From Primorskyibacter aestuariivivens (GTDB lineage Bacteria > Pseudomonadota > Alphaproteobacteria > Rhodobacterales > Rhodobacteraceae): a stretch of 64,000 bases of DNA. The first letter of the stretch is position 1; each line of letters starts with the position of its first letter. The notes beneath the pieces are model-generated. The model was given only the letters and a program-made list of their open reading frames with translations, ran no database searches and had not been told where the DNA came from. Below, in pieces: positions 6,757 through 43,263 of the stretch. Where the stretch lies: NCBI RefSeq assembly GCF_028023675.1, contig NZ_JAQIOZ010000005.1:188282-252281 (forward strand), in the 5' to 3' direction. Made by a program: the position numbers and the translations under genes.

Positions 6757-7302
6757 ACTGTCGTCGCGCATCGCCACGTTGACAAAGCACCAGGCGGGTG
6801 CCTCCGCACCGGCCAGTTCATGCGACCGCTTGCCCTTGATCCGCGCCGCGCGGTACATGCGCGCGGCCCTCGAATTGCGCGCGCGAATGCGATCGCCGGG
6901 ACGGGCCAGCACGCCGACCGGCACGGTCTCCATGATCCAGCGCCAATCCTGCCACTGCGGAAATTGCACCAGATTGTCTGCCCCCATGAGCCAGACGAAC
7001 CGCGCCTGCGGATAGGTTTTCATCAGCGCCCTGATGGTCTGTGCGGTATACCGCGTGCCTGCGCGTGCCTCGAAATCGCTGATCTCCACCCGTGGATGAT
7101 CCATGATCGCCCGCGCCGCCGCGATCCGCTCGGCCATCGGCGCGGGGCCGTTTTCCTTGAGAGGATTGCCGGGGCTGACCAGCCACCAAACCCGGTCCAG
7201 CCCAAAGCGTTTGAGCGCCTCGCGGGTGATATGCACATGGCCCTCATGCGGCGGATCAAACGAGCCGCCCAGCAGGCCGATCACCTGTCCCCGATACGCC
7301 AT
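6703..7302 (-). CDS. nadD: Nicotinate-nucleotide adenylyltransferase
   Basis: Makes nicotinate adenine dinucleotide from NaMN and ATP, the penultimate step of NAD synthesis; nadE for the last step is at 33374. The 199-residue protein starts with [17 protein letters not shown], containing the (H/T)xGH nucleotidyl-transfer motif as HEGH, and has [12 protein letters not shown], the NadD substrate-binding stretch. The C-terminal ISTTxxR-type motif appears as [14 protein letters not shown] 7302 has GGAG 5 nt upstream; in-frame GTG 7320 is an alternative. In many alphaproteobacteria nadD sits next to proA and rsfS; neither is here. Confidence 0.93.
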
Positions 7303-7384
7303 GCCTGCTCCCATCACCAAGCCCCTGCCAAACCCAAGGCATATCAGGGCTTTGGCCGGGACTTGTCAATCGGGGCGGCCCGTC

Positions 7385-8281
7385 TCAGGGCAGCACTGCG
7401 ATGACCGGCTTGTGATCGGATTGTGGCACCGACACGTCATAGCGCTCCGGCACTCTGGGCACTGCCGCCCCTGCGCTGTCGAATACGTAGTCGCCGGGCC
7501 GACACCAGGGCTCCAGCCCGCTGCAGTTCCACGGGATCACGGTCGAACAGCAGCTCGTCGGCGCATCGCGCACCCCGGCCTCCGTCCCGATCCCCGCATC
7601 GCCAAAGGGCCGCCAGGTCACCGGCCCGGTCCCGGTCCGGCGATAGGAGGCCTCGTTGAAATCCCCGGTCAAGATGATCCGTGAGCGGCTGACAAAGGCG
7701 GAGACTTCGGCATAGTCCGGCGCATCCAGCACCCGCAGCGCATCGTCAATCGCCTGTTCCAGCCGGGTCAGGCTACAGCCACCGTGACAATTATGGATAT
7801 TCACAAAGGTATAGGCCCCGCCCTCCTGATCGGTGAACAGGTTCACCATGATCGGCCGCCCGCGCCCGATATCGCCATTGATCGACCTGAAGCGATGGGT
7901 AAACCGCTCGGGATCGTAAAAGATCACCATCTCCTCATGCCCCGAAGGCGGCCGGGTAATGGCCTGCATCCGGCCAATCGTCTCTGGCGCGAGAAACCGG
8001 AAGTCTTGCCAGTTGCTGGCTTCCTGCATGCCGATGAAATCGTAGCGCTCCGCATAGCCGTCAATCGCGCGGCCCATCGCCTGCGAACAACTGGTCACCG
8101 AACGCGCCGCGCCGCCGTCATTCACCGTCGTATCGCGGCACTGCCCACCCAGCCCCGCGCGTCCCGGTGACATGCATTGCCAGCACACATTATAGCTCAT
8201 CACGGTCAGCGGCTCCTGGGCGATGACACCGCCGCCGGTGAAGGCCAGAAAAATGGCGGATAGTATGGTTATGATGCGCAT
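7385..8281 (-). CDS. Secreted endonuclease/exonuclease/phosphatase (EEP) family protein
   Basis: 298 residues with a signal peptide (cleavage likely after GGGVIA) and an EEP fold. Metal and catalytic positions are visible: SYNV near the start, GMQEAS, NIHNCHGG, TGDFNEAS and the final SDHKPVIA. Family members hydrolyse DNA, phosphoinositides or sphingomyelin; which applies here cannot be told. The protein is unusually Cys-rich (CWQC, CSQ, CHGGC, SCCS, CSG, WC), so disulfides are likely and fit an extracytoplasmic location. ATG 8281 is chosen for the signal peptide. Divergent from the retron-like unit; I see no functional link because this protein is exported. Confidence 0.82.
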   Translation of the reverse strand: MRIITILSAIFLAFTGGGVIAQEPLTVMSYNVCWQCMSPGRAGLGGQCRDTTVNDGGAARSVTSCSQAMGRAIDGYAERYDFIGMQEASNWQDFRFLAPETIGRMQAITRPPSGHEEMVIFYDPERFTHRFRSINGDIGRGRPIMVNLFTDQEGGAYTFVNIHNCHGGCSLTRLEQAIDDALRVLDAPDYAEVSAFVSRSRIILTGDFNEASYRRTGTGPVTWRPFGDAGIGTEAGVRDAPTSCCSTVIPWNCSGLEPWCRPGDYVFDSAGAAVPRVPERYDVSVPQSDHKPVIAVLP

Positions 8282-8388
8282 GGCGTTGCTTCCCGATCTG
8301 CGCCGCAGAACGCGCGACCCCACCCAGCCTGACAGACATGCCTGCCCCCGACTGTGAGCCAGCGCATAGGTATTGGTGCAATTCCCGG

Positions 8389-8417
8389 TTGACGCCCAGC
8401 CGCGCCACCCGTTCAAT
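8389..8417 (+). promoter_or_regulatory. Sigma70-like promoter for the retron-like RNA
   Basis: TTGACG (8389-8394) and TTCAAT (8412-8417) are separated by exactly 17 nt and match 5 and 4 of 6 consensus bases. The predicted transcript start, about 8424-8426, coincides with the first base of the long inverted repeat at 8426. This is a manual match only. Confidence 0.5.
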
Positions 8418-8425
8418 GCGCACAA

Positions 8426-8582
8426 GGGACGGGCCGCCGTTCAAGCATCGCGGGCGACCGCATATACCCTGGGGCTTCCCCTCGGTCAGATAAGAACAGC
8501 ACCATTCGGCGCACGACCGTCACTGGGCCTTGCCCAGGCACGGTCGCGCAGAGCAGAGTTCGGTTGAAAGGCGACCCGCCCC
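8426..8582 (+). ncRNA. Candidate retron msr-msd RNA
   Basis: Lies in the 304-nt gene-free stretch 8282-8585. Segment 8426-8444 can pair with 8564-8582 at 16 of 19 positions with three isolated mismatches, as the a1/a2 repeats of a retron RNA do. The 3' repeat ends 3 nt before the reverse-transcriptase ATG. Inside are two hairpins: 8456-8487 (GACCG...CGGTC outside, GGGG-CTT-CCCC inside) and 8514-8546 (CGACCGT...ACGGTCG outside, CTGGGC-CTT-GCCCAG inside). Directly after the 5' repeat comes GCATCG, so G8445 in an AAGC context is where a retron branching guanosine would be. The AAAGG that could serve as ribosome-binding site for the RT is inside the 3' repeat. Folding was done by eye in GC-rich DNA. 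Confidence 0.6.
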
Positions 8583-8585
8583 CCA

Positions 8586-9863
8586 ATGACGGCAGAGCAG
8601 TTTTTCCACCGCCTCGCCGATCCGCTCTCCCGACAGCCCTGGCGCCCCGATGCGCTCGCCGCCCGGCTCCGCGCTCTCCTGCCCACCGAACTGGCCGGCC
8701 TGGCCCACCCCATCGCGCTGCAACTCTGCAACCGGCTCAAGGCCCCGGTCGGGCCTCCCGCTGCGCGCATCGCTGCGGCACTCCGGGAGATCCCGGAATG
8801 CGAATTGCCGCTGAAATACGCGCTGAAACACGGCGTGCTGCCCGCGCCGGACTGCGACTCGGCGGAGTTCCTGCCTGCCCATGCCTTCGCCACCGCGGCC
8901 CTGCCGCCCCTGACCAGCTCCGATGATCTCGCCTTCTGGCTGGGCCTCACCCCTGATCAACTCACCCGCTTCGCCGATCAGCTAGGGCTCTCCAACCGGA
9001 CGGACAACGCCTTCGCCCCACATTACCTCTTTCACACCCGCCCCAAGCGCGACGGCACGCTGCGGCTGATCGAAGAGCCCAAACCGCTGCTCAAACGCCT
9101 GCAGCGCCGCCTGCTGCATGGGCTTCTCGACGCGGTCCCGCCCAGCCCCCACGCCTATGGGTTCACGCCCGGGCGCAGTTGCGCCGAAGCCGCCAGCCGC
9201 CATTGCGGCGAGGCGCTGGTGGTGAGCTTCGACCTGCGCAGCTTCTTCCCGTCCATCACCGCGCCCCGCGTCTTCGGCCTGTTCCGCACGTTGGGCTACC
9301 CGGCGGATGTCGCACGTCTCCTGACCGGTCTCTGCACCCTGCGTACCCCGTCACATATCCGCCAAAAGCTCGGCCGCAACGCCGACCCGCGCTACGCCAA
9401 CCGCCATCTGCCCCAAGGCGCGCCAAGCTCGCCCGCGCTGGCCAATCTCTGCGCCTTCGGGCTCGACCGCCGCCTCGCGGGGCTGGCTCGCCGTCTCGAC
9501 GCCACTTACTCCCGCTACGCCGACGACCTGACATTTTCCGGCGATGCCGATATCGGCCCGCCGCTCCTGCGCGCCGTGCCGCAGATCGTCCGGGAAGAGA
9601 GGTTCGCGCTCGCCCCAGCCAAAACCCGCCTCAGCCGGGCCTACCAGCAGCAGCGCGTCACGGGCATCGTGGTCAACCGTCACCTGAACCTTCCCCGTCG
9701 CGATTTCGACCGGCTCAAGGCCGAGATCCACCAATTGCCCCGGGACGCCAGCACCGACACGCTCCATCGCCTCATGGGCCGCATCGCCTGGGTCGAGACG
9801 CTGAATCCGGCCAAAGCCGCCCGCCTGCGCGCGCAGCTCGACAAACGCCTCTCCCGGCCCTGA
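8586..9863 (+). CDS. Retron-type reverse transcriptase with N-terminal extension
   Basis: RNA-directed DNA polymerase of 425 residues. RT blocks in order: RPKRDGTLRLIEEPKP (152-167), HAYGFTPGRS (189-198), catalytic block A FDLRSFFPSI with Asp216, LPQGAPSSPALAN (275-287), and catalytic block C SRYADDLTFSG with Asp313/Asp314. The retron-specific VTG of region Y is present (358-360, QRVTGIVVN); the NAxxH of region X appears as AASRH (202-206), with the Asn replaced by Ala. Helix DDLAFWLGLTPDQLTRFAD (113-131) is the usual retron pre-RT element. Residues 1-110 are an extra N-terminal part I do not recognise; myxobacterial retron RTs also carry N-terminal extensions. ATG 8586 is the first start codon after in-frame TGA 8565. 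ettA follows 74 nt downstream. No effector gene, toxin or transposase is adjacent. Confidence 0.9.
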   Translation: MTAEQFFHRLADPLSRQPWRPDALAARLRALLPTELAGLAHPIALQLCNRLKAPVGPPAARIAAALREIPECELPLKYALKHGVLPAPDCDSAEFLPAHAFATAALPPLTSSDDLAFWLGLTPDQLTRFADQLGLSNRTDNAFAPHYLFHTRPKRDGTLRLIEEPKPLLKRLQRRLLHGLLDAVPPSPHAYGFTPGRSCAEAASRHCGEALVVSFDLRSFFPSITAPRVFGLFRTLGYPADVARLLTGLCTLRTPSHIRQKLGRNADPRYANRHLPQGAPSSPALANLCAFGLDRRLAGLARRLDATYSRYADDLTFSGDADIGPPLLRAVPQIVREERFALAPAKTRLSRAYQQQRVTGIVVNRHLNLPRRDFDRLKAEIHQLPRDASTDTLHRLMGRIAWVETLNPAKAARLRAQLDKRLSRP

Positions 9864-9937
9864 TCCCGATTGCTCCCGCCCGCCGCCTCGGCTATCACAC
9901 GCTCTGACCCGATTTTCCAAGCACCCAGAGGACAGAC

Positions 9938-11593
9938 ATGGCCGCTTACCAGTACGTTTACCACATGCAGGGCGTCTCCAAGACCTATCCCGGCGGCAAG
10001 AAATGTTTCGAGAACATTCACCTGTCCTTCCTGCCCGGGGTGAAAATCGGTGTGGTCGGTGTCAACGGTGCCGGTAAATCCACCCTGATGAAGATCATGG
10101 CCGGGCTCGACACCGATTTCACCGGTGAAGCCTGGGCTGCCGAGGGCGCCAAGGTTGGATATCTCCCGCAGGAGCCGGAACTGGACCCATCACTCGACGT
10201 GCGTGGCAACGTGATGCTCGGTGTCGCTGGGAAAAAAGCCATTCTCGACAAGTACAACGAGTTGGCGATGAACTATTCCGATGAAACCGCCGACGAAATG
10301 GCTGCGCTTCAGGACCAGATTGACAGCGAAAACCTCTGGGATCTGGATTCACAGATCGACGTCGCCATGGAGGCGCTGCGCTGCCCCCCCGATGATGCCA
10401 ACGTCACCTCGCTCTCGGGCGGTGAAAAGCGCCGCGTGGCGCTGTGCAAGCTGCTGCTTGAAGCGCCCGACATGCTGCTCCTCGACGAGCCGACCAACCA
10501 TCTGGACGCCGAGACCATCGCCTGGCTGCAACAGCACCTGATCGACTACAAGGGCACGATTCTGATCGTCACCCACGATCGTTACTTCCTCGATGACATC
10601 ACCGGCTGGATCCTTGAGTTGGACCGTGGCCGCGGCATCCCATACGAGGGCAACTATTCGGCCTGGCTGGAGCAGAAGGCCAAGCGCCTGCAGCAGGAAG
10701 CCCGCGAAGACAAGGCCAAGCAAAAGACGCTGGAGCGCGAATTGGAATGGATGCGGCAGGGCCAGAAAGCCCGCCAGGCCAAGTCCAAGGCGCGGATTCA
10801 GGCGTATGAGGAAATGGCCAACCAGTCCGAGCGCGAGAAAATCGCCCGCGCGCAGATCGTCATCCCCAATGGCCCACGCCTGGGTGGCAAGGTGATCGAG
10901 GTCGAGGGCCTGAAAAAGGCCATGGGCGACAAGCTCCTGATCGAAGACCTGACGTTCAGCCTCCCCCCCGGCGGCATCGTCGGCGTGATCGGCCCGAACG
11001 GCGCCGGTAAATCGACGCTGTTCAAAATGCTCACCGGTCAGGAACAGCCCGATGCGGGCTCGGTGACCTATGGCGACACCGTCGATCTGTCATACGTGGA
11101 CCAGTCCCGCGATGACCTGAAACCGGACGACACGGTCTGGGAGGCGATCACCGGCGGGGCCGAGATCATCCAATTGGGCGACGCGCAGGTCAATTCCCGC
11201 GCCTATTGCTCCTCCTTCAACTTCAAGGGCGGCGATCAACAGAAGAAAGTCGGCCTGCTCTCCGGCGGTGAACGCAACCGGGTCCACATGGCGCGGCTGT
11301 TGAAAGAGGGCGGCAATGTGCTGCTTCTCGACGAACCGACCAACGATCTGGACGTGGAAACCCTGCGCGCCTTGGAAGACGCGCTGGTCGATTTCGCCGG
11401 TTGCGCCGTGGTCATCTCGCACGACCGTTTCTTCCTTGACCGGATCTGTACCCATATCCTCGCCTTCGAGGGTGAGGCGCATGTGGAATGGTTCCAGGGC
11501 AATTTCGAGGATTACGAGGAAGACAAGAAACGTCGCCTCGGGGCCGATGCGCTGGAGCCGAAGCGGTTGAAGCATAAGAAGTTCAGCCGGTGA
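9938..11593 (+). CDS. ettA: Energy-dependent translational throttle protein EttA (ABC-F)
   Basis: Cytosolic ABC-F ATPase that binds the ribosomal E site and gates the first elongation steps according to ADP/ATP level. The 551 residues contain two nucleotide-binding domains: Walker A GVNGAGKST and signature LSGGEKRR in the first, GPNGAGKST and LSGGERNR in the second, joined by the charged helical P-site-interaction linker (about residues 240-320, rich in K, R, E, Q). Each domain has LLLDEPTN. There is no transmembrane segment. Length and both linker and C-terminus match EttA rather than Uup or YheS. Confidence 0.95.
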   Translation: MAAYQYVYHMQGVSKTYPGGKKCFENIHLSFLPGVKIGVVGVNGAGKSTLMKIMAGLDTDFTGEAWAAEGAKVGYLPQEPELDPSLDVRGNVMLGVAGKKAILDKYNELAMNYSDETADEMAALQDQIDSENLWDLDSQIDVAMEALRCPPDDANVTSLSGGEKRRVALCKLLLEAPDMLLLDEPTNHLDAETIAWLQQHLIDYKGTILIVTHDRYFLDDITGWILELDRGRGIPYEGNYSAWLEQKAKRLQQEAREDKAKQKTLERELEWMRQGQKARQAKSKARIQAYEEMANQSEREKIARAQIVIPNGPRLGGKVIEVEGLKKAMGDKLLIEDLTFSLPPGGIVGVIGPNGAGKSTLFKMLTGQEQPDAGSVTYGDTVDLSYVDQSRDDLKPDDTVWEAITGGAEIIQLGDAQVNSRAYCSSFNFKGGDQQKKVGLLSGGERNRVHMARLLKEGGNVLLLDEPTNDLDVETLRALEDALVDFAGCAVVISHDRFFLDRICTHILAFEGEAHVEWFQGNFEDYEEDKKRRLGADALEPKRLKHKKFSR

Positions 11594-41828: not shown

Positions 41829-41887
41829 GCAGGCAAATTCAAGTTGCCAGCACGGTGCGCCATCGCATACAGTCTGCCCGACTCAGT

Positions 41888-42038
41888 GGGAGAACCGGAC
41901 CAACCGGTGCCGAAGGAGCAACCGCCCCGGAAACTCTCAGGCCACAGGACCGCTGGGACACAGACAACTCTGGAGAGATCCCGGCATCGCCCGGGGCGCC
42001 GAAGGGATAACGATCTCAGGCGGAAGGACAGAGGGGGC
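41888..42038 (+). ncRNA. Tandem glycine riboswitch
   Basis: Two glycine aptamers in series. The first contains GCCGAAGGAGCAACCGCC, then GAAACTCTCAGGC and AGGACCGC; the second contains GCGCCGAAGGGATAACGA, then TCTCAGGCGGAAGGACAGAG. These match the conserved cores of the family. They are joined by the usual short linker (about ACAACTCTGGAGA). It precedes gcvT and switches on the glycine cleavage operon when glycine is plentiful. Confidence 0.95.
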
Positions 42039-42079: not shown

Positions 42080-42126
42080 GATGATCCATCATGCGGACAC
42101 ACCGGCCCGAAAGGGAGAATTGGGAC

Positions 42127-43263
42127 GTGTCCGAAGACGATGATGGGCTGAAACACACGCCGCTTTATGACCTGCATGTAAGCCTTGGGGCCAAGATGGT
42201 GCCCTTTGCGGGCTATGACATGCCGGTGCAATATCCGCTGGGCGTGCTCAAGGAACACCAGCATACCCGCGCCAAGGCCGGGCTGTTCGACGTAAGCCAT
42301 ATGGGCCAGGTGGTGCTGCGCGCCAAGGACCCGGAAGCGGCCAAACGCGCGCTGGAGGCGCTGGTGCCCGTGGATGTGCTGGGTCTGGGCGAAGGGCGGC
42401 AGCGCTACGCGTTTTTCACCAATGACCATGGTGGGATCGAGGATGACCTGATGATCGCCAATCGCGGCGATCACCTGTTCGTGGTGGTCAACGCCGCCTG
42501 CAAGGCGGCCGATATCGCCCGGATGCGCGCCGCACTTGAGCCAGAGGTGACGGTCAAGGAAATCACCACCCGCGCATTGCTGGCCCTGCAAGGCCCGGCG
42601 GCGGAGGCGGTGCTGGCCGAGCATTACCCCAACATTACCAATATGAAATTCATGGATGTGGAAACGCTCCCCCTGGGTGGTGCCGAATGTTGGGTCTCGC
42701 GCTCGGGCTATACTGGCGAGGACGGGTTTGAGATCTCGGTGCCCGAGGCGGCGGCGGTCGATCTGGCCAAGGCGTTGCTGGCGCATGAGGATGTGGAACC
42801 CATCGGCCTTGGCGCACGCGACAGCCTGCGTCTTGAGGCGGGGCTCTGCCTCTATGGCCATGACATCGACAGCTCCACGACGCCGGTCTCGGCGCAATTG
42901 ACATGGGCGATGCAAAAGGTCCGCCGCCCCGGTGGCGACCGCGCAGGTGGCTTTCCCGGTGCGGATGAAATCTTCAGCGAACTGGCCGAGAGCTGCGCGC
43001 AAAAACGCGTCGGCCTGCGCCCCGACGGGCGCGCGCCGATGCGCGAAGGGGTGGAGATTTTCGCCAGCGAAGAAGGCGGCGAAGCGGTGGGCCGCGTCAC
43101 CTCGGGCGGGTTCGGCCCCACGGTCGGCGGGCCGGTGGCGATGGGCTATGTCTCGTCGGCCTTGGCCACCGAGGGCACGCAGCTATACGGTGAGGTGCGC
43201 GGCAAGAGACTGCTGGTGACGGTGGCGAAACTGCCCTTCGTGCCGCAAGGTTTCAAAAGATAA
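42127..43263 (+). CDS. gcvT: Glycine cleavage system T protein (aminomethyltransferase)
   Basis: Transfers the methylene carbon of glycine from the lipoyl arm of GcvH to tetrahydrofolate and releases ammonia. 378 residues: PFAGYDMPVQYPLG at the N-terminus, SHMGQV, YTGEDGFEIS and the folate-binding LGARDSLRLEAGLCLYGHDI. GTG 42127 has GGAG 9 nt upstream; an in-frame ATG at 42091 would add twelve unlikely residues. First gene of gcvTHP, downstream of the riboswitch. Confidence 0.94.
   Translation: MSEDDDGLKHTPLYDLHVSLGAKMVPFAGYDMPVQYPLGVLKEHQHTRAKAGLFDVSHMGQVVLRAKDPEAAKRALEALVPVDVLGLGEGRQRYAFFTNDHGGIEDDLMIANRGDHLFVVVNAACKAADIARMRAALEPEVTVKEITTRALLALQGPAAEAVLAEHYPNITNMKFMDVETLPLGGAECWVSRSGYTGEDGFEISVPEAAAVDLAKALLAHEDVEPIGLGARDSLRLEAGLCLYGHDIDSSTTPVSAQLTWAMQKVRRPGGDRAGGFPGADEIFSELAESCAQKRVGLRPDGRAPMREGVEIFASEEGGEAVGRVTSGGFGPTVGGPVAMGYVSSALATEGTQLYGEVRGKRLLVTVAKLPFVPQGFKR

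What the first reader, a model, noticed from the sequence alone, without database searches (positions are those of the whole stretch)
8389..9863. Retron-like unit: promoter, inverted-repeat-bounded RNA and N-terminally extended RT
The sequence shows three independent features in retron order. A 17-nt-spaced promoter-like pair at 8389-8417 predicts a start at about 8424-8426. Segment 8426-8444 then pairs with 8564-8582 at 16 of 19 positions. The RT start codon follows 3 nt later, and the RT has the VTG motif and retron-type catalytic blocks. From knowledge of retrons, a1/a2 repeats, a branching G just after a1 (here AAGC, G8445) and an RT directly downstream are diagnostic. Inference: this is an active msDNA-producing locus. 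I cannot tell whether this lineage has been described.
Basis: partly seen in the sequence, partly recalled or inferred. Interest (0 to 1): 0.93.

Follow-up and report, generated by a model that had tools for sequence, protein, structure and literature searches.

The report
Solo retron with conserved template RNA
This stretch of a Rhodobacterales chromosome holds what looks like a complete retron, a short structured RNA plus the reverse transcriptase that should copy part of it into DNA, of a widespread lineage without a recognised partner gene, so what it does for the cell is still open.

Summary
The finding holds. 8426-8444 pairs with 8564-8582 at 16 of 19 positions, and the RT starts 3 nt later. 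The decisive evidence is comparative: the same RNA lies upstream of all 14 full-length orthologous RTs found in 394 genomes of the family. On 26 sequences its helices are 96.5% paired against 76.3% in shuffles, and 25 of 29 pairs show compensatory changes. Promoter spacing is conserved in 25 of 26. Of 80 named loci from a wider search, 65 have the RNA just upstream of the RT and 13 have no hit.

The RT lies in a well-supported clade covering six phyla in the tree, apart from presumptive Mx65 and Mx162 lineages. In 71 loci no neighbour recurs in more than 8, mostly local synteny. The RT's first ~100 residues form a helical domain without a match in the PDB or viral library. Three sister genomes have the same nadD-ettA site without the retron.

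Verdict: a real retron, functional by conservation though no msDNA was observed; a new member of a known kind (PADLOC RT_outgroup/RT_other) whose effector is unsolved.

The parts
8389..8417 (+). promoter-like pair TTGACG - 17 nt - TTCAAT
   Evidence: position conserved in 25 of 26 sequences against 7.4 of 26 in shuffles; strict consensus scan lists none
8426..8444 (+). a1, 5' arm of the long stem
   Evidence: 16 of 19 pairs with a2; helix 1 of the family has both-side changes at 8 of 8 pairs
8445..8445 (+). predicted 2'-OH priming (branching) G
   Evidence: first base after a1; G in 25 of 26 sequences by eye, 16 of 26 automatically
8450..8461 (+). msr hairpin 1 (GCGG-GCGA-CCGC)
   Evidence: MFE and centroid fold; hairpins at this place in folds of orthologues, read by eye; not part of the covariance structure
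8466..8486 (+). msr hairpin 2 (GGGG-CTT-CCCC core)
   Evidence: helix 2 of the family model, 96.6% of cells paired
8499..8563 (+). predicted msd (about 65 nt copied from 8563 leftwards); left limit approximate
   Evidence: inferred from the layout; the length is guided by the 65 in the name Mx65; not measured
8509..8549 (+). msd hairpin (outer stem 8509-8520/8540-8549, inner stem 8523-8528/8532-8537)
   Evidence: helices 3 and 4 of the family, both-side changes in 12 of 13 pairs
8564..8582 (+). a2, 3' arm of the long stem
   Evidence: helix 1
8586..9863 (+). retron reverse transcriptase, 425 aa
   Evidence: PADLOC RT_other 403 bits and RT_outgroup 387 bits; Pfam RVT_1; AF2 model pLDDT 94.9, nearest solved fold Ec86 RT, TM 0.83 by target length
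8586..8900 (+). N-terminal ~105-residue helical domain of the RT
   Evidence: five helices between residues 3 and 82; no Pfam match at E 1, no PDB or BFVD match at E 0.001

Best explanation
A complete two-part retron. Shown: a ~157-nt RNA (a1, msr hairpins, msd hairpin, a2) of conserved structure directly upstream of a retron-type RT with intact catalytic residues, with a conserved promoter position. Inferred from retron biology: one transcript is made; the RT binds the msr, primes on the 2'-OH of G8445 and copies about 65 nt leftwards from G8563; RNase H trims the template, leaving msDNA bound to the RT. Inferred function (about 0.5; I first put 0.6 and lowered it because the RT core changes no faster than the neighbours nadD and dac): anti-phage surveillance like other retrons but without a dedicated neighbouring effector, the output lying in the N-terminal helical domain of the RT or in an unlinked host protein.
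For: Pairing and order. Covariation: 21 of 29 pairs on 14 orthologues; 25 of 29 pairs, score 0.582 against 0.172 shuffled and 0.09-0.12 slid, on 26 sequences, 12 of which were not in the model's training set. RNA model just upstream of the RT in 65 of 80 named loci, 63 at E 0.01 or better. RNA and full-length RT co-occur: 14 RT carriers and 15 RNA carriers of 394 family genomes; the odd one (G079) has an open frame after the RNA that resembles the RT N-terminus by eye and is cut by the contig end. RT family and fold. Promoter position. For a dispensable, defence-like gene: patchy presence (14 of 394) and three sister genomes empty at the site.
Against: No msDNA or transcript data. Region X lacks the N of NAxxH in 14 of 14, though validated Mx65 also departs there (PMC6868368, passages). 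13 of 80 loci gave no RNA hit (2 of them, L049 and L087, begin too near the locus end), and 2 hits fell outside the rule used (L096, L104). L125, a full-length RT elsewhere in the class, also gave none. No conserved effector in 71 loci. The RT core (57-65% identity) is less conserved than EttA (77-87%), but like nadD (61-72%) and more conserved than dac (46-57%), so fast evolution does not argue for defence.
Confidence: 0.9

Rival explanations
1. The retron is real but works outside phage defence: an old, vertically inherited element whose msDNA serves a host process, for example titrating a DNA-binding or repair protein.
For: No conserved effector. The nine-RT subclade of the window shares one chromosomal site: nadD upstream in 8 of 8 relatives, EttA downstream in 7 of 8. 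RT core change is ordinary beside nadD and dac. No relative found in viral contigs, one weak one in phages, six partial ones in plasmids.
Against: Patchy distribution (14 of 394 family genomes) and absence at the site in 3 of 3 sister genomes looked at suit a dispensable gene.
Confidence: 0.3
2. A neighbour is the effector: the divergent exonuclease-endonuclease-phosphatase family gene (7385-8281, minus strand) or ettA (9938-11593).
For: Both are adjacent; the former is missing together with the retron from three sister genomes.
Against: The phosphatase-family gene has no homologue in any other locus fetched (many of which have only 1.5 kb flanks) and seems to start with a signal peptide (by eye). 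EttA is housekeeping: matches at E 1e-200 in 18 of 21 genomes, own included. In the sister genome G099 the DNA aligns from window 9860 on, so ettA seems to keep its own promoter (by eye).
Confidence: 0.04
3. A decayed retron whose RT or RNA no longer works.
For: Three mismatches in the a1/a2 stem; the window scores lowest (85.3 bits) of 26 in the RNA model.
Against: Intact 425-aa frame with YADD, other hairpins intact, fold model pLDDT 94.9. Imperfect stems occur in relatives too. The low score is partly a one-column misfit of the window in the model alignment.
Confidence: 0.06
4. The paired RNA is only a leader or attenuator of the RT gene and not a template.
For: It lies in the 5' leader of the RT.
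Against: Long closing stem, G after the 5' arm, msr-like hairpins then an msd-like hairpin, kept in that order beside retron-type RTs in several phyla.
Confidence: 0.03

Closest known systems
Uncharacterised ~442-448-aa Myxococcus RTs ('group A' here: L069 = L133, L070 = L134, L141-L151)
   Same: three tested rows (L069, L070, L144) fall in the same 49-row clade, 100/100; RNA model upstream of the two tested (L070 42.2 bits, L069 28.9 bits); profile match over positions 5-426 of 433 for L133 and L134
   Different: 45% identity to the window over the RT core only, N-terminal part not alignable pairwise; L069 has LAG for VTG
Retron-Mxa2 (Mx65)
   Same: RT of nearly the same length (427 aa by the coordinates in PMC8934634, passages), N-terminal extension, N of NAxxH replaced, AGC-type priming site (PMC6868368, passages)
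   Different: presumptive Mx65 RTs (427-428 aa, GAxPH; identified by length and motif only) fall outside the clade and match the family profile only from about position 99
Retron-Mxa1 (Mx162)
   Same: N-terminal extension and msr-msd-RT order (PMC6868368, passages)
   Different: 162-nt msd; presumptive RTs (483-485 aa, NALAH; the 485 aa of Mx162 is recalled) fall outside the clade
PADLOC retron RT_outgroup / RT_other models
   Same: best matches over nearly the whole protein including the N-terminus, for the window and five relatives
   Different: the library rows shown name no effector for them; the window scores 403 bits against 551 for Myxococcus L069
Retron-Eco1 (Ec86)
   Same: nearest solved RT fold, E 1.1e-21
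   Different: 28% identity over the aligned part; solved with a separate effector (entry title); shorter chain (314 residues)
Other retrons reported from Rhodobacterales
   Same: same order of bacteria: a PADLOC-predicted msr-msd + NDT + RT system in Sulfitobacter faviae (PMC10221251, passages) and a 314-aa retron-like RT on a Paracoccus plasmid (PMC3832669, passages)
   Different: shorter RTs, the first with its own effector; not compared by sequence here

Membership tests
Retron (msr-msd-RT element) | a1/a2 stem closing an RNA directly upstream of the RT | tested here: met
Retron (msr-msd-RT element) | priming G at or right after the end of a1 | tested here: met
   G8445; 25 of 26 sequences by eye, 16 of 26 automatically; AGC itself not conserved
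Retron (msr-msd-RT element) | RT with YxDD catalytic core | tested here: met
   14 of 14 YxDD: 13 YADD, one YVDD
Retron (msr-msd-RT element) | VTG at the start of region Y | tested here: met
   window VTG; 12 of 14 orthologues
Retron (msr-msd-RT element) | NAxxH in region X (14 of 16 validated retrons, PMC6868368) | tested here: not met
   N is A, G or S in 14 of 14, A203 and H206 invariant; validated Mx65 and Ec48 also depart, so it is common to retrons but not required
Retron (msr-msd-RT element) | msDNA with 2'-5' branch | not testable with these tools
   needs nucleic acid from the strain
Tripartite retron defence systems with a typed effector | type-specific effector fused or adjacent | tested here: not met
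   no neighbour recurs in more than 8 of 71 loci, mostly local synteny; the N-terminal domain has no known match, so an unrecognised fused effector is not excluded
PADLOC RT_outgroup / RT_other retron RT | best profile match over the whole RT | tested here: met
   403 (RT_other) and 387 bits (RT_outgroup) against 302 for the next model, RT_XIII
Mx65 / Mx162 lineages | RT inside the same clade | tested here: inconclusive
   49-row clade 100/100 excludes presumptive members of both, but these were named by length and motif, not by the authentic sequences
Rfam RNA families | match to a curated model | tested here: not met
   no family at E 10 over 8300-8700

The most novel reading that the evidence does not exclude
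The ~105-residue N-terminal helical domain, unmatched in the libraries searched, is the built-in effector or sensor of a single-protein retron class present in at least six phyla: msDNA bound by the RT part holds the N-terminal domain in check, so no separate effector gene is needed.
Probability: 0.25. Interest if true: 0.75.

Novelty: new member of a known kind. Interest (0 to 1): 0.45.

Why it matters
Most studied retrons have a recognised effector. This lineage keeps a covarying template RNA and an RT in several phyla with no constant partner found, so it gives a clean set of loci in which to ask how a retron acts without a dedicated neighbour. That is an open point for the myxobacterial retrons too. 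The RNA model can find such loci, which no Rfam family matched here.

Tried and rejected
Rfam search for a known retron RNA: none. Effector search by neighbour clustering in 71 loci (those of the 90 sources with both an RNA hit and a readable RT; the rest were dropped): nadD in 8 and ettA in 7, all Rhodobacterales; across orders the largest sets are 6 loci, a MarR-GNAT fusion (4 of the window's subclade, 2 Burkholderia, at varied places and strands) and a generic ABC ATPase. The MarR-GNAT gene was not found near the window's retron and was not pursued. Seven genes downstream of the RT in four other loci (DCC1-like, DUF4166 dehydrogenase, GGDEF and GGDEF/EAL, MscS; two had no Pfam match) look ordinary. 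EEP gene and ettA rejected as partners. Mobile-element reading: no long flanking repeat in 7250-9960; no viral-contig relative; one phage record at 32.5% identity over 62%; six plasmid records at 40-46% identity, none covering 80% of the query. RT fast evolution as a sign of defence: dropped, since nadD and dac change as fast or faster. Alignment A2 is not structure-aware; in A3 the window's a1 and hairpin 2 sit one column off, so the window's stem was checked directly. N-terminal fold searches gave nothing at E 0.001. Single-protein scans of genome contigs and viral contigs gave nothing. Literature: nine searches showed no paper on this lineage in their listings and in passages of seven papers; most listed papers were not opened, and the classification paper of Mestre 2020 and two others are not held, so absence from print is not claimed.

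Full report
OBSERVATION. Positions 8426-8444 pair with 8564-8582 at 16 of 19 positions, all Watson-Crick; in 60 dinucleotide shuffles of the region the best 19-nt pairing averaged 12.0 and never exceeded 14. The stretch 8420-8590 folds at -76.4 kcal/mol, z = -3.61, 0 of 200 shuffles as stable. The RT starts at the ATG at 8586, three nt after a2. A search of its own genome with this RT gave one match, itself (E 0.001).

WHAT THE RT IS. The 425-aa protein matches PADLOC RT_other (403 bits) and the retron model RT_outgroup (387 bits) over nearly its whole length, ahead of RT_XIII at 302 bits. It matches Pfam RVT_1, and retron RTs head the PDB sequence matches. NCBIfam retron models match below their cut-offs. 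On 14 full-length orthologues YxDD is present in 14 (13 YADD), VTG in 12, and region X keeps A203 and H206 with the N of NAxxH replaced in all 14. A review says that Mx65 and Ec48 also depart at that N, and that myxococcal RTs carry an N-terminal extension of unknown function (PMC6868368, passages). The AlphaFold2 model made with a 40-row alignment has mean pLDDT 94.9; the nearest solved fold is the Ec86 RT (E 1.1e-21, TM 0.83 by target length).

THE RNA. Upstream of the 14 full-length orthologous RTs found in the family I read, in folds and by eye, the same arrangement: long outer stem, msr hairpins, msd hairpin, then the RT start. RNAalifold on the 14 predicts 29 pairs, 21 with compensatory change. 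A covariance model (R1) recovers 26 of 27 sources at 85 bits or more, 12 of them not used to build it; the 27th, L125, gave no hit. On these, 96.5% of cells pair against 76.3% in shuffles, 25 of 29 pairs change on both sides (13.3 shuffled), and the covariation score is 0.582 against 0.172 shuffled and 0.09-0.12 with slid partners. That alignment was fitted to the model, which leans towards the structure; the 14-sequence alignment was not. The outer stem is 98% paired, with both-side changes at 8 of 8 pairs. The base after a1 is G in 25 of 26 by eye (the script's own count is 16 of 26 because it extends some helices further; L034 has A then G). The best promoter-like site ends 2-12 nt before the RNA in 25 of 26, against 7.4 in mononucleotide shuffles; the strict scanner finds none in the window.

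DISTRIBUTION. Of 394 family genomes, 50 have some RT match at 1e-10 and 14 a full-length one. Fifteen have the RNA: the same 14 plus G079, whose contig ends 354 nt after the RNA within an open frame that resembles the RT N-terminus by eye (tblastn itself gave no significant match there). Of 80 named loci, the best of 562 relatives found, 65 have the RNA just upstream of the RT, 63 at E 0.01 or better. Thirteen have no hit, two of which begin too near the locus end; two hits break the placing rule, L104 (far off) and L096, whose short RT frame does start 9 nt after the hit. Hosts by record title include Rhodobacterales and other Alphaproteobacteria, Burkholderia, Planctomycetota, Acidobacteriota, Actinomycetota, Gemmatimonadota and Myxococcota; one title, 'Exiguobacterium' (L036), sits among Rhodobacterales and looks mislabelled. 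A 64-row tree, drawn with midpoint root, puts the window in a 26-row alphaproteobacterial clade (100/100) within a 49-row clade (100/100) that excludes presumptive Mx65 and Mx162 RTs and other retron RTs of the family (that output warns of long branches among the outer rows and of odd composition in eight). The names Mx65 and Mx162 were assigned by length and motif (the 485 aa of Mx162 is recalled), not by sequence identity.

SITE AND INHERITANCE. In the nine-RT subclade of the window (100/99), nadD lies upstream in 8 of 8 relatives and EttA downstream in 7 of 8. Identity to the window is 57-65% for the RT core, 32-38% for the N-terminal part in the 5 of 8 where it is detected, 77-87% for EttA, 61-72% for nadD, and 46-57% for dac in the 7 of 8 where dac is found. 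The RT core is thus not unusually fast. Three sister genomes of the same genus have nadD and ettA with no retron between them; R1 finds only an 11.6-bit hit at E 0.62 inside ettA of one. In G099 homology resumes at window 9860, the RT stop. G099 has no match to this RT anywhere at 1e-10; G802 and G803 were examined at this site only. No long flanking repeats were found. One old acquisition followed by vertical descent and loss is the simplest reading, but the RT tree was not compared with a species tree. The RT is richer in G+C (69.6%) than the window (62.4%) or ettA (60.4%), which a later arrival could also explain.

EFFECTOR. Clustering the genes within 4 kb of the RT in 71 loci finds none in more than 8; nadD (8) and ettA (7) are local synteny, and across orders the largest sets are 6 loci, a MarR-GNAT fusion and an ABC ATPase. 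The adjacent phosphatase-family gene has no homologue in the other loci fetched. The constant extra part is the RT's first ~105 residues, five helices with no Pfam match (five proteins) and no PDB or viral structural match at E 0.001.

MECHANISM. Shown: conserved RNA, conserved RT, conserved order and promoter place. Inferred: 2'-OH priming at G8445, copying of ~65 nt leftwards from G8563, RNase H trimming, an RT-bound msDNA. The ~65 nt is inferred from the layout and from the size in the name Mx65. Function is inferred as defence without a dedicated neighbour, about 0.5; a non-defence host role is the main rival (0.3).

NOVELTY. The kind is known and the RT falls in a catalogued profile. Retrons and msDNA are already reported from Alphaproteobacteria (10 of 63 rhizobial isolates, PMC6868368, passages; PMC8867640, passages) and other retrons from Rhodobacterales. 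That some retrons lack a clear neighbouring effector is also in print (PMC8867640, passages). The RNA matches no Rfam family. No paper on this lineage showed in nine searches, but the main classification paper is not held. I therefore call it a new member of a known kind, of moderate interest.

Noticed in passing
window 41877-41962 (+): Glycine riboswitch (RF00504, 58.9 bits) just upstream of an ORF at 42091-43263 that looks like gcvT by eye and a 947-aa ORF that looks like gcvP: an ordinary glycine-cleavage operon.
   Followed up: partly
window 7385-8281 (-): Divergent endonuclease/exonuclease/phosphatase-family gene, apparently secreted (by eye), found only in the window among loci fetched and missing with the retron from three sister genomes.
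   Followed up: partly
loci L133-L139 and L141-L168 (Myxococcus genus): All 27 genomes searched in the genus of G774 hold 2-4 retron-type RTs at E 1e-40, in several groups by motif and length; the ~442-aa group related to the window has FAxPH where the script could read it, and no VTG in region Y.
   Followed up: partly
window 8450-8461: msr hairpin 1 of the window carries a GCGA (GNRA-type) tetraloop.
   Followed up: no
L172 and L170, between nadD and ettA: In two sister genomes the nadD-ettA interval holds about 560-680 bp of other sequence (a MOSC-like minus-strand gene by eye), so the interval seems prone to gene turnover.
   Followed up: no
L033, L034, L036, L117, L064, L099: A MarR-GNAT fusion gene lies within about 4 kb of the RT in six loci of two orders, at varied places and on either strand.
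   Followed up: partly
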